Below are positions 1,422 through 7,426 of a stretch of DNA of 7,426 nucleotides, in pieces (within the stretch, counting starts at the first letter, position 1; each line of letters opens with the position of its first letter). The position numbers and the translations under genes are program-made. Below the pieces are notes generated by a model. The model was not told the DNA's origin, searched no databases, and worked only from the letters and a program-made list of their open reading frames with translations. The stretch is from Acidimicrobiaceae bacterium (GTDB lineage Bacteria; Actinomycetota; Acidimicrobiia; Acidimicrobiales; UBA8190), in assembly GCA_003131945.1 (NCBI GenBank), contig PKWD01000320.1, positions 5,516 through 12,941 on the forward strand, read 5' to 3'.

Positions 1422-1829
1422 ATGACAACCATGAGCACCGTCACCGTGGCCGGCAACCTCACCCGGGACCCGGAAATCCGCTATACGCGCGATGGTCAGG
1501 CCCACAGCTCACTGTCTCTGGCCGTCACCCGCCGCTGGCAGAACCGGGACACTCAGGAGTGGGAGGAGGCCACCGCCTTCTTCGACGTCTCCTGCTGGCG
1601 GGAGCTGGCCGAGAACGTGGCCCTCAGCCTCACCAAGGGGGCGCGGGTCGTGGTCACCGGTCGCCTGGAGCAGCACAGCTGGGAGACCGAAGGCGGTGAC
1701 CGCCGGACCAAGGTGGAGATCCTGGCCGACGACATCGGGGCCAGCCTCCGGTTTGCCACGGCCGAGGTTCAAAGGGTCCAGCGCCACAACGGTGCCCACG
1801 AGTCCGTCGACAAGGCTGCACCCGCTTGA
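1422..1829 (+). CDS. ssb: Single-stranded DNA-binding protein, plasmid/MGE type
   Basis: The 135-residue product is a bacterial SSB that coats single-stranded DNA during replication and conjugative transfer. The OB fold spans about residues 5-110, with the family signatures GNLTRDPEIRYT (11-22), FFDVSCWRELAENV (53-66) and KGARVVVTGRLEQ (72-84). The aromatic residues Trp39, Phe54 and Trp59 lie where DNA-stacking residues are expected. The ATG at 1422 follows AAGGAG at 1408-1413 with 8 nt between them; Met4 is a possible second start. After the OB fold only about 25 residues remain, ending HESVDKAAPA. The Gly/Pro-rich linker and the acidic tip (DDDIPF type) that bind replication partners in chromosomal SSBs are absent. 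The gene sits 298 bp before the relaxase gene, with a terminator between them, and fits an element-encoded helper. The open frame extends far upstream, but that part is not coding-like. Confidence 0.93.
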   Translation: MTTMSTVTVAGNLTRDPEIRYTRDGQAHSSLSLAVTRRWQNRDTQEWEEATAFFDVSCWRELAENVALSLTKGARVVVTGRLEQHSWETEGGDRRTKVEILADDIGASLRFATAEVQRVQRHNGAHESVDKAAPA

Positions 1830-2127: not shown

Positions 2128-4494
2128 ATGTTGTCCATAGGGCGACTCGGCACCACCGGCGGAGCCGAGTACTACCTCGACAAGGTCGCTAACAACGTCG
2201 ATGACTACTACCTCGGTCGGGGCGAAGCCCCGGGGCAATGGATCGGAGCGGCGACCCAAGGGCTGGGGCTGGTCGGCGAAGTCGACGCCGTGGCCCTGCG
2301 GAACCTGCTGGCTGGGAGGTCGGCCTCGGGGGAGGAGCTGGGAGCCCGGCTGTCCAAAGAGCGACGCCCTGGCTACGACCTCACGTTTTCGGCCCCAAAG
2401 AGCGCCTCGCTGCTGTGGGCCTTCGGGGCCGACGAGGTCCGTGATGCCATCTCGGTCGCCCATGACCGGGCTGTGGAGAGCGTCCTCGACCACCTGTCCA
2501 CCGAGGCTTGCTACGCCCGCCGAGGCGCCGGGGGCAGCCGACTCAGCGAGGCCAACGGCTTCATCGCTGCCGCCTTCCGGCACCGCACCAGCCGGGCCGG
2601 CGATCCCCAGCTCCACACCCACGTCGTCGTGCCGAACCTGGTCCAGGGCTCCGACGGCCGGTGGTCAGCCCCCGACGGCCGTCATCTCTACGCCTGGAAG
2701 ATGACCGCCGGCACCCTCTACCGCTCCGCCCTGCGGGCCGAGCTGCGACCTCTCGGCCTCTCCTGGCACGTCCGGCGCAACGGCCTGAGCGAGGTGCGCG
2801 ACGTCCCCCAGGCGATCCTCCGGGCCTTCTCCAAGCGCAGGGTGGACATCGAAGCGGTCATGGCTGAACGAGGCAGTACCTCGGCCAGAGCGGCCGAGAC
2901 CTCGGCTCTGGCCACCCGACAACGCAAACCAGCCGGTACGGCACCGACAGGCCTGTTGCGCCAAGGCTGGTGGGAGCAGTTGGCCGGTATCGAGCTTGCC
3001 GACGCCGCCGGGGGCACTCGTCCGGCTGGCGTGGACGACATCACCGCCGCCCTCGGCCAAGAGACAGCGATCCCGCCCGGACCTGAGGACACCGAGGCCG
3101 TCCTCCGGGTCCTGGCCGGAGAGAAAGGCGTGTCTCTCGACGACTGGGAGATCGACGACCACCTGGCTCCCGACGCCCGGGCCATCCCCGTCACCCTGCT
3201 GGGGTCGACCTTTACTCGCCGGGAAGCGATCAGCGCCGTGGCCAGGGCCTTCGACGTCACCCCCGATCAGGCGCTGGTTCTCACCTCCGAACTGCTCGAC
3301 CGTGACAGCGTCGTCCGGGTCCTGGCTGACCTCGATGCCCCGACGGACAGCATTCGGACGAGAAGCGGCCACATCGTCCCCGCCACGACCGGCGATCGGC
3401 GCTACACCACTACCGAGCTCCTGGCCGCGGAGCAGCGCATCATCGGTTCGGCGACCGCTCGAGTGGGCGAGGGTACCGCCCGGGTCGCCCCCGGCACCGT
3501 CGAAAAGGTCCTCGAGTCCTATGCGCAGCTCGATCCCGAACAGGCCAACGGCGTGCGGACTCTTCTCACCTCGGGCAACGGCTACGACCTGGTGATCGGC
3601 CAGGCCGGAACGGGGAAGTCGACCATGCTCGGTGCCGCCCGGGCCGGCTGGGAGGAGGCGGGCTACAAGGTCATCGGCACTGCCGTAGCGGCCCGGACGG
3701 CCGCCGACCTCGAGACCGGTACGGGAATCCCGAGCTCGTCCCTCACCCAGCTCCTGGCCGACCTGAGAGAAGGAGGCGGACTCACCTCCCGCCACGTCAT
3801 CGTGGTCGATGAGGCGTCGCTCGTGGGCAGCCGGCCCCTCGACCGGCTCCGCTCCCACGTCGACGGGGCCGGGGCGAAACTGGTTCTCACCGGCGACAAC
3901 CGCCAGCTGTCGTCCATCGACGCTGGCGGGGCCCTGCGGTCGCTGTCGCACGAACTCGGATCCCACGTCGTCACCCTCACCGCCAACCGCCGCCAGGCCG
4001 GCTCCGACCAGCAGTGGGAACGCGACGCCCTCGTCGCTCTCAGGGACGGGAACGCCGAACGGGCCGTCCACGCCTACACCGAGCACGGACGGGTCACGAT
4101 CTCCGGCACCATCGACGAGGCCCGGCACCGACTCGTCGAGGACTGGTGGGCCGCCCACCACGACCACACCACCGCCATCCTGGCCCTCCGCCGGGCCGAC
4201 GTGGTCGCCCTGAACGACATGGTCCGAGCTCGGCGCCACGCCGGCGGTGAGCTCGGCCAAGAGATCACTCTCGGCACCAAGGCCTTCAGCGTCGGCGACC
4301 GGGTGCTTTTCGAGAAGAACCAGCGGGTGGCAGAAGCGGACAACCCCAGTCGCTCCGTCAGACTCCAGGTGCGAAACGATGCTTCTATCGATGTCAAGGG
4401 GCAAGTTGTCGTGGTTGCTGGCAGACCAGTGATGGGCCGCTCGTGTGTGAGGGGCAGGCTTCTATTAGGCCAAGCTCCACGAGATCGTGTGTAG
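2128..4494 (+). CDS. MobF (TrwC/TraA-type) relaxase-helicase, 5' fragment cut by an IS
   Basis: MobF relaxases nick oriT, attach covalently to the 5' end and unwind the strand for transfer. The ATG at 2128 gives the family N-terminus MLSIG. The catalytic tyrosine region has pairs at Tyr15/16 and Tyr27/28 (VDDYYLGRGEAPGQW). The metal-binding histidines are His152, His163 and His165, in FRHRTSRAGD and QLHTHVVVPN. The helicase half shows Walker A GQAGTGKST (491-499, Lys497), Walker B VVDEAS (Asp561-Glu562) and motif III LTGDNRQL (Asp590). The native sequence ends at about codon 752 (4383). After that, 36 residues encoded by the IS lead to a stop at 4492-4494, for a 788-residue product. It therefore keeps the nickase domain and ATP-binding motifs but lacks the last helicase motifs and the C-terminus. 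No strong ribosome site is visible; CGGGG lies about 10 nt upstream. Transfer function is probably lost or reduced. Confidence 0.9.
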   Translation: MLSIGRLGTTGGAEYYLDKVANNVDDYYLGRGEAPGQWIGAATQGLGLVGEVDAVALRNLLAGRSASGEELGARLSKERRPGYDLTFSAPKSASLLWAFGADEVRDAISVAHDRAVESVLDHLSTEACYARRGAGGSRLSEANGFIAAAFRHRTSRAGDPQLHTHVVVPNLVQGSDGRWSAPDGRHLYAWKMTAGTLYRSALRAELRPLGLSWHVRRNGLSEVRDVPQAILRAFSKRRVDIEAVMAERGSTSARAAETSALATRQRKPAGTAPTGLLRQGWWEQLAGIELADAAGGTRPAGVDDITAALGQETAIPPGPEDTEAVLRVLAGEKGVSLDDWEIDDHLAPDARAIPVTLLGSTFTRREAISAVARAFDVTPDQALVLTSELLDRDSVVRVLADLDAPTDSIRTRSGHIVPATTGDRRYTTTELLAAEQRIIGSATARVGEGTARVAPGTVEKVLESYAQLDPEQANGVRTLLTSGNGYDLVIGQAGTGKSTMLGAARAGWEEAGYKVIGTAVAARTAADLETGTGIPSSSLTQLLADLREGGGLTSRHVIVVDEASLVGSRPLDRLRSHVDGAGAKLVLTGDNRQLSSIDAGGALRSLSHELGSHVVTLTANRRQAGSDQQWERDALVALRDGNAERAVHAYTEHGRVTISGTIDEARHRLVEDWWAAHHDHTTAILALRRADVVALNDMVRARRHAGGELGQEITLGTKAFSVGDRVLFEKNQRVAEADNPSRSVRLQVRNDASIDVKGQVVVVAGRPVMGRSCVRGRLLLGQAPRDRV

Positions 4495-4576
4495 CTGGAG
4501 CGGCGGGCCGGCAAATCGTTTCAAAGACAGCCCGAAGGCGTCAGGCACTTATGGGGCCAGGCCCGCCGCTCCAGTG
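4405..4576 (-). ncRNA. Candidate bridge RNA (seekRNA) of the IS110-family element
   Basis: Read 5' to 3' on the minus strand, a perfect 15-bp stem (4574-4560 with 4509-4495) closes a 50-nt loop. The loop holds GTGCC (4548-4544), a GCC-TTCG-GGC mini-hairpin (4539-4530) and GAAACGAT (4522-4515). A second stem, TCGTGG (4482-4477) with CCACGA (4414-4409), closes a loop holding ATAGAAGC (4465-4458) and CATCACT (4434-4428). GAAACGAT equals the plus-strand target just left of the insertion (4373-4380), and GTGCC equals the minus strand just right of it (5897-5893). ATAGAAG matches one IS end with its core (4388-4382), and CATCACT equals the plus strand at the other end with its core (5886-5892). The order, target loop then donor loop, and the strand choice fit known bridge RNAs. 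The RNA limits are approximate, and one core-adjacent base on each target guide does not match. Confidence 0.7.
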
Positions 4577-4578
4577 AC

Positions 4579-5619
4579 CTACGCGCGAGGCAGGTAGGGA
4601 TAGACCTCGCGGGCGACATAGCGTTTCAGGATCCGGATGATCTCGCGCTTGGAACGACCCTCCTTGGTGCGGCGCTCGACGTAGTCACGCGTGCGCGGAT
4701 CACTGACCATGCGGACCATGACAATGCGCCACAGCGCACTGTTGGCGTGACGGTCGCCGCCGCGGTTGAGCCGGTAACGGGTGACCTTTCCCGAGGAGGC
4801 CTCGATGGGAGCCACCCCGCACATATGCGCCCACGCCGCCTCTGAGCGCAGCCTCTCGGGGTTGTCTCCGGCGGCGACGAGCAGGGCCGAGGCCGTGTCG
4901 ATTCCCACGCCATGAAGCGCCAGCAATGACGGAGCCGTGGCCGTGACGAGCTCGCTGAGGACGGCGTCGATGCGGGCCGTCTCGTCCTCGAGGTCGAGGA
5001 GCCGCCGTCCGAGTGTCTGGATGGCCAATTTAGTAGCGAAGACGACCGGATCGGACCCGGTCCGGGGCCGCAGGGCGGCCGCCTCGGCCGCCAGCATCTT
5101 CGCCGACACGTCCTTCAGTCGTTCCCGCAGGTCGTCGGGACTGGTGAAGCTGAGGTGCCGAATCTGGTTGAGGGTCTTGATGCGCACGTCACGAGCGGAG
5201 CGTTTGGTTACCACCAAGGCCCTGATCGCTTCGACGTTTCCGTCCCTGGTCTTGGCTGCTCCGCTGGCCCGACCGGACTGCGCGGCCCGGGCCGCCTCGA
5301 TGGCATCGGCGGTGTCGGACTTGCCCCGGGCCCGCCGGGCTTGGCGGTTCTGACGGTCGACCTCCACCACGTCGATGCCGTGCCGGCGCAGATACCGGGT
5401 GAGCCCGGCGCCGTAGGCGCCGGTGCCCTCCACCCCGACCAGGACGACGGGTCCGAAGGCGCCCATCCAACCGAGCAGCTTCCGGTAGCCGGTCGGGGTC
5501 GTGGCAAACGACTCCACGCCAAGGAGCCCACCAAGCGGATCGAGGGCCGCCGCCACGTGGATATCCAGGTGGGTGTCGACTCCACCCGTGACAGAACGCG
5601 TAGCTTCTACGATGGTCAT
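4579..5619 (-). CDS. IS110-family DEDD transposase (recombinase)
   Basis: This 346-residue enzyme recombines the circular IS with its target under RNA guidance. The N-terminal RuvC-like domain shows Asp15 (GGVDTHLD), Glu64 (VGVEGTGAYG), Asp102 and Asp105 (KSDTADA), the DEDD set. The C-terminal Transposase_20 domain has GVGIDTASALL (237-247) with GVAPIEASSGKVTRYRLN (268-285), which contains the catalytic serine (Ser275 or Ser276). The length is normal for the family, and no frameshift is seen. The ATG at 5619 is preceded by AAGGAAGGAAGGG, a good ribosome site. The frame stays open 86 codons further upstream, but that stretch is noncoding in character. It is transcribed opposite to the relaxase gene, and its stop lies 4 nt before the stem of the candidate bridge RNA. 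The gene appears intact, so the element may still be active. Confidence 0.96.
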   Translation of the reverse strand: MTIVEATRSVTGGVDTHLDIHVAAALDPLGGLLGVESFATTPTGYRKLLGWMGAFGPVVLVGVEGTGAYGAGLTRYLRRHGIDVVEVDRQNRQARRARGKSDTADAIEAARAAQSGRASGAAKTRDGNVEAIRALVVTKRSARDVRIKTLNQIRHLSFTSPDDLRERLKDVSAKMLAAEAAALRPRTGSDPVVFATKLAIQTLGRRLLDLEDETARIDAVLSELVTATAPSLLALHGVGIDTASALLVAAGDNPERLRSEAAWAHMCGVAPIEASSGKVTRYRLNRGGDRHANSALWRIVMVRMVSDPRTRDYVERRTKEGRSKREIIRILKRYVAREVYPYLPRA

Positions 5620-5890
5620 GCCATCCCTTCCTTCCTTTAGCTCAAGGGGTGGCACGCACGTCCCGGGACGGAGCAACGGTGCTGATCGGCCTGCTCCTAC
5701 AGGACGATCCGTTACCCCTCCGGAACGGGGCGTGCCGTGTCTGTTCTCGGGTCCCGGTCGACGACGCCGTTCCCAAGACAGCTGGGCGTCACGCGGCTTC
5801 GAAGTCAGACCAACGACCCGAGTGTGCCTGAAGGTAGCGAGATCCTTTCCGCATGGGGTGGATCCACGACCAAGCACCTCTTAATCATCA
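5620..5890 (-). other. Noncoding segment upstream of the transposase (IS end)
   Basis: These 271 nt precede the transposase. They include a 12-bp palindrome CGTCCCGGGACG (5659-5670) and, on the minus strand, a CCCC/GGGG hairpin around 5721. The inverted GTCGTGG copy lies at 5864-5870. In IS110 elements the transposase promoter often forms at the junction of the circular form, which this end would help create. I find no guide-like match to the target here. Confidence 0.45.
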
Positions 5891-5892
5891 CT

Positions 5893-7083
5893 GGCACCTT
5901 CGGCACCGTCGTCGGTGGCGTCGACCTGGCTGGCAACGCTCCGACCAGGGAGGGTGACGCTCCCCAGGCCCAGGGTGACGTTGCCGGCCTGCGAGAGACG
6001 AAGGTCCAAGCCGAGGCGGCCTCGGCTCTCTTGGTCGAGCTCAACGACGGTCGGCGTGCTGTTCTCCCCCGAAGCTACGTCGAGAATTCGACGAGCCTGG
6101 GCTATGCCCTCACGGTGTTCCGCTCTCAGGGGATCACCGTCGACCACACCTTCGGCCTCGGGGGCGACAGTCTCTTCCAGGAGGCCGGCTACACCCAACT
6201 GTCGCGGGGACGGCTGTCCAACAACCTGTACGTCGCCTCCCCTGAGAATCCCAGATGGGAGATCGGTCACCACGCCGACGACACCGCCCAGCGAGATGCC
6301 CTAAAGTCCCTCGTAAGCGCTCTCGCACAGTCCCGGGAACAGACCATGGCCCAGGACCATCTCCCGCAGTGGTCGGCTCCCTCACCCGCCGACCTCGACG
6401 CCACCTACCGCCACCACGCCACGATGGCTCAGTGGCTCAGCGACCAAGCGCCGCCAGACGTCACCGACGCCCTCGCCGCCGCCTCCGACAAGGCGCACAG
6501 CGCCCGTGTCGCTGGCCGGGACACGAGGAGTGCGGAGGCCGACGTGTCAGTCCTCGTCGCCGAGCAACGCTGTCGCGACGAGTGGGTGGCGTCCCACCGA
6601 GGCGAGATCACGGCCTGGTCCAGACTGGAGACAGATGTCCGGCGCTACGAGTACCGGCTCGGCCAGGCCGCCAGCTACACCCAACCCGAGCACGTCATGG
6701 GCCTTCTCGGCCTCCTCCCCGAACGCGTCGGTCACGTCGAACGATGGCAGAGCGCGGCGGGAGCCATCGAGGCGTATCGCACCCGTTGGAACATCGCCGG
6801 CTCAGCCGCCCTTGGCCCCGAACCTGCCGATCCCGAGCAGCATGCCCACTGGGACGCGACCGTTGCCATCGTTGGCGCAGCCGGGTTCCTCACCGCGGGT
6901 GACACGCGTGAAGGCGGATCCGATCGGGCATCGCTGGCCACGCGGTGGGAGAACCTTCGTAACGCTAACCGAGAGCCAGATGAGGACCGCAGCGTCGCTG
7001 GATCGCCGGTCCCGTCACGGGCATCCCTCTGGACCGACGAGCCCGATCTTGATTATGGCTTGGACGACGGCTTCAGTTTGTAA
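5893..7083 (+). pseudogene. MobF relaxase-helicase, 3' fragment separated by the IS
   Basis: These 396 codons continue the relaxase from codon 753 after the IS and have no proper start of their own; the open frame only begins inside the IS, with a GTG at 5737. They carry the last helicase motifs of the TraI/RecD-like domain: LGYALTVFRSQGITVDHTFG (around rebuilt residue 831) and YTQLSRGRLSNNLYV (Arg857). A charged, mostly helical C-terminal region of about 270 residues follows and ends [11 protein letters not shown]. Joined to the upstream fragment through the CT core, they rebuild a protein of 1148 residues, normal for actinobacterial MobF proteins. A linker at about 5935-5995 holds two AGGGTGACG copies 21 bp apart. 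No frameshift or internal stop is seen, so the interruption looks recent. Confidence 0.88.
5951..5980. repeat. AGGGTGACG direct repeat, 21 bp apart
   Basis: The 9-mer lies at 5951-5959 and 5972-5980. Its last seven bases, GGTGACG, are the reverse complement of the CGTCACC heptamer near ssb, and the 21-bp step also occurs there twice. It encodes part of a variable linker (GDAPQAQGDV) in the relaxase, so a coding explanation is possible. Confidence 0.4.
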
Positions 7084-7426
7084 AGAAAAGTGAAGCGGGA
7101 CCCGCGTTGCGGGAGGCGATCCCCGAGGAGTCAGCGTCGACTGACCCGGGTGATCCAGGGGGCTGATTCGAGGATCCCCCCGGATCCGGAGCTGATGTCG
7201 CGACGACTGAATGCCTCGCCCCCACCGGTCCGTTCGGGGCGACCGGGTGTTCACGCTTGACGACGGGAAGGTAGACCCGGGCGCCCTGGTGCAAGAACTC
7301 CGCTGATTTCTGCCGCATGCCCAGCTCGAGAGCGTCGGCGTCCTCGACACCGTGCTCGGCGGCGTACTTGCGGACGTCCTGGCTGATCCGCATGGAGCAG
7401 AAATGAGGGCCACACATCGAGCAGAA
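7073..7426 (-). CDS. thiC: Phosphomethylpyrimidine synthase ThiC, C-terminal part
   Basis: ThiC is a radical-SAM enzyme that turns aminoimidazole ribotide into HMP phosphate in thiamine synthesis. The visible 117 residues start inside the gene with [10 protein letters not shown], the CxxCxxxxC motif that holds the [4Fe-4S] cluster, then [29 protein letters not shown] and GARVYLPV, the normal C-terminus. The gene enters from beyond the right edge of the window. After YLPV it runs on for about 62 low-complexity residues (rich in Pro, Ser, Gly and Ala) to a TGA at 7075-7073, overlapping the convergent relaxase stop by 11 bp. ThiC normally stops within a few residues of that point, so the native stop may have been lost by a frameshift, a sequencing error or an element junction. 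One frame over, a TGA lies directly after VYLPVVK (about 7257-7259). Confidence 0.93.
7086..7113 (-). terminator. Hairpin plus T-rich tract, likely thiC terminator
   Basis: On the minus strand CCCGC-AAC-GCGGG (7113-7101) is a perfect 5-bp hairpin, followed about a dozen bases later by CTTTTCTTT. It looks like a factor-independent terminator for thiC, but it lies before the in-frame stop at 7073, so the run-on tail would be transcribed past it. Confidence 0.45.
7155..7183. terminator. GGGGG/CCCCC hairpin in the thiC run-on tail
   Basis: CCAGGGGG (7155-7162) pairs with CCCCCCGG (7176-7183) with one mismatch and a 13-nt loop, next to the palindrome CCGGATCCGG (7180-7189). It is more typical of an intergenic region than of coding sequence. 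Confidence 0.35.

What the first reader, a model, noticed from the sequence alone, without database searches (positions are those of the whole stretch)
4405..4576. Bridge RNA candidate whose guides can be read from the sequence
Two stem-loops follow the transposase stop. The first loop holds GAAACGAT (8 nt, equal to the target left of the insertion) and GTGCC (5 nt, equal to the minus strand right of it). The second holds ATAGAAG and CATCACT, matching the two IS ends, each including the CT/AG core. Order and strand choice are those known for IS110-family bridge RNAs, in which one guide of each loop pairs with the bottom strand and the other with the top strand. A single short match could be chance; four in the right order within two stem loops are unlikely to be. 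The core-adjacent base differs on each target guide, so this target may be a relaxed one.
Basis: partly seen in the sequence, partly recalled or inferred. Interest (0 to 1): 0.85.

Follow-up and report, generated by a model that had tools for sequence, protein, structure and literature searches.

The report
Relocated bridge RNA with leftover copy
A bacterial jumping gene carries, behind its transposase gene, the RNA that tells it where to insert, and still keeps the worn-down original in front of it; its relatives catch this guide RNA in the act of being copied from one end of the element to the other.

Summary
Window 4410-4574 (minus strand) is a bridge RNA: target loop and donor loop behind an IS110 transposase (4579-5619). 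Across relatives all four guides track the DNA they should pair with, and 19 of 24 target-loop and 6 of 9 donor-loop pairs show compensatory changes. One detail fails: the CT/AG "core" is probably not target DNA. Relaxase relatives without the insertion lack it, and the circle-junction promoter has a proper 17-18 nt spacer only if the element is 4379-5893. The supposed core mismatches then vanish, and GTGCCGTTTC, 10 nt, is matched without a break.

Beyond the finding: in this lineage the RNA ancestrally lies in front of the transposase and moved behind it twice. In one clade it was duplicated: 21 of 75 classified complete elements hold a target loop at both ends; none holds two donor loops. 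In 12 elements with a strong front copy the two right target guides co-evolve while the stems do not. The window is a late stage: a decayed front target loop (5747-5822) plus a closed hairpin (5651-5736) where the donor loop was. New variant of a known kind: relocation through a two-target-loop intermediate. Not shown: transcription, or function of the front RNA.

The parts
4379..5893 (-). IS110-family element, 1515 bp, inserted in a MobF relaxase/helicase gene (ends shift together by 1 nt: 4378-5892 is equivalent)
   Evidence: Uninterrupted relaxase relatives lack the extra six bases; 17-18 nt junction promoter spacer only with these ends; length
4579..5619 (-). IS110 (DEDD) transposase/recombinase, 346 aa, open frame intact, with motif G..P....SG
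   Evidence: NF033542 163.4 bits above its cut-off of 140, PF01548 and PF02371; nearest solved: ISCro4, IS621; motif
4496..4574 (-). [quoted passage not shown]
   Evidence: Fold; covariance model R1 81.5 bits (the window is in the training set); 19 of 24 pairs with compensatory change
4544..4553 (-). left target guide CATAAGTGCC; GTGCC equals the left flank here and at three further copies in a relative's genome
4517..4522 (-). right target guide GAAACG, complementary to target CGTTTC
4515..4516 (-). handshake guide AT, pairs with the element's right terminal AT after strand exchange
   Evidence: covaries with the right terminus, 1.61 of 2 against 1.27, n=33, 0 of 20000 shuffles; named by analogy with IS621
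4410..4484 (-). 3' donor-binding loop
   Evidence: model R2 64.1 bits (in the training set); 6 of 9 pairs with compensatory change
4458..4466 (-). left donor guide AATAGAAGC
   Evidence: 8 of 9 match to the right end
4427..4434 (-). right donor guide CATCACTG
   Evidence: 8 of 8 match to left end CAGTGATG
4379..4397 (-). right end of the element (TTGACATCGATAGAAGCAT), with the -35 half of the circle-junction promoter at 4392-4397
5884..5893 (-). left end of the element (CAGTGATGAT), with the -10 half GATGAT of the junction promoter at 5884-5889
5747..5822 (-). decayed 5' target-binding loop; guides CGAAGCCGCG / GGGAACGGCG
   Evidence: R1 32.5 bits, E 2e-4, not in training; 5' guides of the nine weak copies with readable flanks do not detectably track flanks, though the window's own 5' left guide agrees with its flank at 7 of 10, as many as the 3' guide
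5651..5736 (-). 5' hairpin in the place of the ancestral donor loop, closed, without guide loops
   Evidence: fold -55.1 kcal/mol, z -4.30; no R2 hit there
2128..4378 (+). 5' part of the interrupted MobF relaxase/helicase gene
   Evidence: PF08751 275 bits, NF041492 263 bits
5894..7083 (+). 3' part of the interrupted relaxase gene
   Evidence: weak TraA profile matches below their cut-offs; collinear with relative L147

Best explanation
This is an IS110-family element whose working bridge RNA sits behind the transposase gene. Its target loop (guides GTGCC and GAAACG) reads a 10-nt target, GTGCCGTTTC, and its donor loop reads the element's own two ends; the recombinase then inserts the circular element there with no target duplication (mechanism inferred from IS621). 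The 3' position is derived. In this lineage the bridge RNA was ancestrally in the 5' leader; it was duplicated to the 3' end, the 5' donor loop closed into a plain hairpin, and the 5' target loop then either kept tracking the target (sister groups) or decayed (the window). Shown here: structure, guide-flank covariation, order of events on a rooted tree. Inferred: transcription from the circle-junction promoter, RNP assembly, recombination.
For: Stem covariation, 19 of 24 and 6 of 9 pairs. Guide tracking at flanks and ends. Weak-5' elements (9 with flanks): 3' left guides track (5.89 against 3.19, 1 of 20000; right 4.44 against 3.34, 88 of 20000), 5' guides do not detectably (3.22 against 2.70, 2128; 2.33 against 2.26, 9319). 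The window and three copies with a left part about 95% alike, at four different sites, all have GTGCC on the left, equal to the end of the window's 3' guide. No element has two donor loops: 75 complete elements classified, and ten further complete loci scanned later have a donor loop in front (9) or none (1). Rooted tree: 5'-only elements basal and paraphyletic, dual and 3' elements in one clade (33 rows, 100/98), a second 3' clade of 5 (99/95). Junction promoter: TTGACA/G with an nAnnnT hexamer at 17-18 nt in 31 of 31.
Against: No transcript or activity data. Related copies are not independent, so shuffle counts are not probabilities. The window's left guide matches only five bases without a break, and its decayed 5' left guide also agrees with the flank at 7 of 10. 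Nearest relative L001 has a 3' end that fits neither its left flank nor its own left end, so not every copy tracks. The clean empty site rests on one close relative (85% DNA identity) plus four distant relaxases; a fifth distant one (L152) aligns there without a gap but without the motif.
Confidence: 0.86

Rival explanations
1. Both RNAs work: in dual elements the 5' leader gives a target-only RNA that loads one recombinase dimer, and the 3' bridge RNA supplies donor (and target) loops, a natural two-RNA arrangement; the window is a lineage that lost it.
For: Among 12 dual elements the right target guides of the two copies agree within an element (6.25 of 8 against 4.73, 0 of 20000; within subclades, 11 elements without L043, 157 of 20000), while the stems do not (13.08 against 13.33 of 28, 14226 of 20000). 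5' guides of strong copies track flanks weakly (377 and 146 of 20000). In IS621 target and donor loops of one synapse come from two RNA molecules, and separate loops work in vitro (PMC11208158, passages); a 58-nt RNA suffices for ISEc21 (PMC11187229 section 12).
Against: Left guides agree less clearly (248 of 20000; within subclades 2334). Repeated decay shows that the front loop is dispensable. L043 has a strong 5' loop whose guides fit nothing at its site.
Confidence: 0.35
2. The 5' loop and closed hairpin are kept as a regulatory leader of the transposase mRNA (the recombinase binds its own message) rather than as a guide.
For: A hairpin at this place ahead of the start codon is present in both independent 3' clades (sequences; folds of the window, L013, L009, L003 and L069 beat their shuffles).
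Against: Does not explain co-evolution of 5' and 3' right guides; folds of L025 and L042 are no better than shuffles; the consensus fold is weak (7 of 13 pairs with compensatory change, -5.8 kcal/mol).
Confidence: 0.25
3. IS1111-type element with the usual 3' RNA.
For: 3' position.
Against: Left guide precedes right guide (IS1111 order is reversed, PMC11187229); the sister group and the basal rows of its tree carry 5' RNAs.
Confidence: 0.03
4. Guide-flank matches are chance or shared descent.
For: Many flanks share CGGC with related guides.
Against: Among the 10 elements with a 3' loop and flanks not ending GGC the left guide still tracks (6.90 against 3.06, 0 of 20000).
Confidence: 0.02

Closest known systems
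IS621 bridge RNA (IS110 group; Durrant 2024 PMC11208160, Hiraizumi 2024 PMC11208158; passages read)
   Same: Target loop then donor loop, left/right guides for opposite strands, handshake bases, circular donor
   Different: RNA in the left end there; here in the right end with a decayed left copy; no two-base core shared by target and donor can be shown here
ISEc21 seekRNA (IS110 type; Siddiquee 2024 PMC11187229, sections 6 and 12 read)
   Same: Same guide order; transposase of similar size (358 aa)
   Different: 5' NCR; no second copy described in the sections read
IS1111 group (ISEc11, ISPa11, ISKpn4)
   Same: RNA behind the transposase
   Different: Order of the two target matches reversed; subterminal inverted repeats of 7-17 bp
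IS with two long NCRs (26 of about 350 in ISfinder, e.g. ISHvo10, ISAcp5; PMC11187229 section 6)
   Same: Non-coding stretches at both ends
   Different: The main text says only that both are long; here both are shown to derive from bridge RNA, one without donor loop

Membership tests
IS110 family | DEDD transposase with PF01548 and PF02371 and the SG motif | tested here: met
   catalytic residues not checked one by one
IS110 family | Insertion without target duplication | tested here: met
   Relative L147 aligns as GTGCGAAACG then GCACC with nothing doubled beyond one base; one close relative
IS110 group (as against IS1111) | Left (bottom-strand) target guide 5' of the right guide | tested here: met
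   4544-4553 is transcribed before 4515-4522
IS110 group | Bridge RNA in the left end (typical, not strict: exceptions are in print) | tested here: not met
   Complete RNA is in the right end; left end has a decayed target loop only
IS1111 group | Reversed guide order | tested here: not met
   as above; rule from PMC11187229
IS1111 group | Subterminal inverted repeats of 7-17 bp | tested here: inconclusive
   Longest matches between the two 60-nt ends: CAGTGATG, which is the donor guide itself, and GTCGTGG, 7 bp
bridge RNA | Two internal-loop hairpins with conserved stems | tested here: met
   target loop 19 of 24 pairs compensatory; donor loop 6 of 9
bridge RNA | Four guides covary with target and donor DNA | tested here: met
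bridge RNA | RNA is made, binds the recombinase, directs recombination | not testable with these tools
   needs RNA-seq and assay
bridge RNA | Core dinucleotide shared by donor and target | tested here: inconclusive
   The empty-site relative allows at most one shared base, C; rests on one close relative

The most novel reading that the evidence does not exclude
A clade of IS110 elements uses two RNAs with two target loops and one donor loop: a target-only RNA from the 5' leader whose former donor loop has been zipped shut, plus a full bridge RNA from the 3' end. Both target guides are kept in step by selection when the element changes target. This would be a natural split bridge system, and the intermediate by which bridge RNAs change ends.
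Probability: 0.35. Interest if true: 0.85.

Novelty: new variant of a known kind. Interest (0 to 1): 0.7.

Why it matters
In the papers I saw, the move of bridge RNAs between the two ends of IS110-family elements is inferred from a deep split (PMC11208160, passages). Here the move can be followed among transposases 48-72% identical to the window's, twice, with its intermediates still present. It also points to recombinases that may accept a separate target RNA in nature, which bears directly on programmable recombination, and gives a further case of handshake-guide covariation.

Tried and rejected
Rfam at gathering thresholds: 0 matches in the window. Viral contigs, one scan with the single protein: no relative. 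Transposase in plasmids: 1969 records, 20 at 60-80% identity and 1949 below, none followed up. Empty sites for two copies (L118, L124) in 65 genomes of one genus: these copies insert just behind stop codons, where relatives do not align; 3 of 15 relatives whose sequence was shown read CTGACCC there, which agrees with the revised ends but proves little. An ORF-span test of joined flanks, run for the revised ends only, told nothing, since the two end models differ by six bases and both stay in frame. A consensus fold of the closed 5' hairpin is weak. Core CT/AG as target-derived: rejected. Gene conversion between the two target loops: not favoured, since stems are no more alike within than between elements. 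A meeting report on IS621 (PMC12859917, passages) added nothing.

Choices that could bias: left ends were found by eye, and right ends by a pattern that asks for TTGAC; three right flanks (L002, L006, L007) were set by hand because the pattern had missed them or taken a site inside the donor loop. In one search I had put L043 in the weak group after seeing its mismatch; one search repeats the test with a fixed cut (5' score 45 bits) and is the one I rely on. Elements without a readable end are left out of the guide tests. Of 114 loci scanned with R1 I carried 92 to the table; of the 22 dropped, 5 repeat other loci, 7 are partial, and 10 are complete, distant (49-55% identity) and have a weak R1 match (5) or none (5); those 10 are not among the 75 but were scanned with R2 afterwards. 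One of the 92 (L137, partial) has no hit. L019 (8 stops) and L142 (long branch) were dropped from the rooted tree but kept in the guide tests. Close copies remain in the counts (L104/L118, L075/L144, L009/L010).

Full report
OBSERVATION. The stretch folds better than all 200 shuffles (z -3.75), and the internal loops of the two hairpins hold the words. The gene 4579-5619 (-) is an IS110 transposase with the motif G..P....SG known from the family (PMC11187229, section 6 read). It interrupts a MobF relaxase gene.

RELATIVES. One scan of genome contigs gave 32 loci encoding relatives. Whole-genome searches gave matches in 23 of 23 genomes chosen because they held such loci, in 76 of 397 of the order (E up to 1e-40), 10 of 396 of the phylum and 16 of 200 of another family (E up to 1e-90; some genomes recur). 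Twenty more stretches were fetched by place. A covariance model of the target loop (R1) was built from 37 loops, 22 from behind and 15 from in front of the transposase; 19 of its 24 pairs have compensatory changes. A donor-loop model (R2) was built from 36 loops, 25 behind and 11 in front; 6 of its 9 pairs have compensatory changes.

ALL FOUR GUIDES TRACK THEIR DNA. 3' left target guide: 6.48 of 9 against 3.84 shuffled, n=27. 3' right target guide: 4.64 of 8 against 3.10, n=33. Neither reached in 20000 shuffles. With only the 10 elements whose left flank does not end in GGC: 6.90 against 3.06, 0 of 20000. Donor guides against the element's ends: 7.04 of 8 against 5.56 (n=28) and 7.61 of 9 against 6.94 (n=33), 0 of 20000 each. 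Single cases are striking: L043 AAAACGTACC 10 of 10; L003, L007 and L058 9 of 10. The nearest relative L001 is a counter-example: 3' left guide 3 of 10. For the window itself, three copies in one relative's assembly (L001, L018, L028; 89-96% DNA identity over the aligned part) sit at other sites, and all have GTGCC on the left, the last five bases of the window's 3' guide. These counts use related copies, so they are not probabilities.

WHERE THE ELEMENT ENDS. L147, an uninterrupted relaxase 85% identical in DNA, reads GTGCGAAACG-GCACC; the window's flanks joined around one CT would read GTGCGAAACG-ATGCTG-GCACC. Of nine relaxase loci with a protein match, five that cross the site lack the two extra residues (L147, L148, L151, L155, L162; L148 is gapped nearby), one distant one (L152) crosses without a gap but without the motif, three stop short of it. 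The base after AG follows the left donor guide (31 of 33 against 24.9 expected; 2 of 20000), so it belongs to the element. If the element is taken as CAGTGATG...ATAGAAGCAT (4379-5893), the circle junction puts an nAnnnT hexamer 17 or 18 nt from TTGACA (TTGACG in L012) in 31 of 31 elements with both ends read, with 4 of 6 consensus bases in 13 and 3 in 18; with the AG-core ends the best hexamer at 16-18 nt has 4 in 1, 3 in 11, fewer in 19. At most one base, C, is then shared by the two joints. The target becomes GTGCCGTTTC, matched without a break by the two guides, and the AT that follows GAAACG pairs with the element's own terminal AT. That position covaries with the element's end (1.61 of 2 against 1.27, n=33, 0 of 20000), as expected of the handshake guides described for IS621 (PMC11208158, passages).

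A SECOND, OLDER COPY. R1 also hits the 5' leader of the window, 5747-5822, at 32.5 bits (E 2e-4; not a training sequence). R1 and R2 over 92 loci (123 R1 hits; 83 R2 hits), sorted by position, give for 75 complete elements: 37 with both loops in front; 21 with a target loop in front plus both loops behind; 13 with both behind only; 2 with a target loop behind only; 2 with a target loop in front only. None has two donor loops. Ten further complete, distant loci left out of that table have an R2 hit in front (9, three of them partial) or none (1), and none behind. In front, dual elements carry a hairpin without guide loops in the donor loop's place (window z -4.30; L013, L009, L003 and, in the second clade, L069 also beat their shuffles; L025 and L042 do not).

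DIRECTION. On a tree rooted with six distant IS110 proteins (two of them partial), elements with the RNA in front are basal and paraphyletic; all 22 dual elements in the tree and 11 of 16 behind-only elements form one clade of 33 (100/98), and the other 5 (L069, L070, L073, L079, L081) a second clade (99/95) nested elsewhere. The unrooted tree of 82 rows shows the same two groups. So the RNA moved from front to back twice, and the strong dual state occurs in three separate branches of the first clade.

DO BOTH COPIES MATTER? Dual elements split at 45 bits for the 5' loop. Weak (9 with flanks, window among them): 5' guides do not detectably follow the flanks (2128 and 9319 of 20000 shuffles as good), 3' guides do (1 and 88). 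The window's own 5' left guide does agree with its flank at 7 of 10, like the 3' one; the same guide in L001, L018 and L028 agrees at 4, so I take it as chance. Strong (12 left, 9 right): 5' guides follow weakly (377 and 146 of 20000), 3' guides too (428 and 2). Within strong elements the right guides of the two copies agree more than between elements (6.25 of 8 against 4.73, 0 of 20000; within subclades, 11 elements, 157), left guides less clearly (248; within subclades 2334), stems not at all (14226). L065 and L066 appear to have changed their right guide in both copies. This is what selection for one target in both loops would give; gene conversion should carry the stems along. In IS621 the two loops of one synapse come from two RNA molecules, and separate loops work in vitro (PMC11208158, passages); for ISEc21 a 58-nt RNA suffices (PMC11187229, section 12). 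So a target-only RNA is plausible, not shown.

KNOWN AND NEW. Location behind the transposase in some IS110-type elements, and two long non-coding regions in 26 of about 350 ISfinder entries, are in print (PMC11187229 section 6), as is the inference that the RNA changed ends between IS110 and IS1111 (PMC11208160, passages). I found no description of two target loops with one donor loop, or of guides co-evolving between the ends; searches cover open-licence PMC only, no preprints, and supplements were not read, so absence is weak evidence.

Noticed in passing
L001 2226-3750 (relative of the window's element): L001 is a likely recombinant: 5' leader 95% and the first four sixths of the transposase gene 92-97% identical to the window, then 87% and 73%, 3' RNA region 57%, while that region is 82% like paralogue L100 of the same genome. 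Its 3' guides fit neither its left flank nor its own left end: guide-cassette exchange between paralogues.
   Followed up: partly
L104, L118, L122, L124 (one genome, four copies): All four copies of a 5'-RNA relative follow CTGAC; for the two checked against relatives (L118, L124) the TGA is the conserved stop codon of a gene, so the guide targets a stop-codon context and would spare the gene.
   Followed up: partly
window 4546-4530: The inner hairpin of the target loop followed by TGTCTTTG scores as a terminator-like site; one found against 0.6 expected, so probably chance.
   Followed up: no
window 1422-1829 and 638-940: SSB gene (PF00436, 108 bits) and an ORF with a helix-turn-helix (PF12728, 40 bits) upstream of the relaxase: looks like a plasmid or conjugative element whose relaxase the IS has broken.
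   Followed up: no
window 7073-7417: ORF on the minus strand that resembles the C-terminal end of ThiC by recall only; no Pfam match.
   Followed up: no
L009 and L010: Two closely related elements with different target guides in similar flanks (CACCGTCCCGGC / ATTCGCATGGGGACACC): one may have been inserted by the other's RNA.
   Followed up: no
L043: Strong 5' target loop whose guides fit nothing at its site, while the 3' left guide matches 10 of 10: the 3' copy was retargeted alone.
   Followed up: partly
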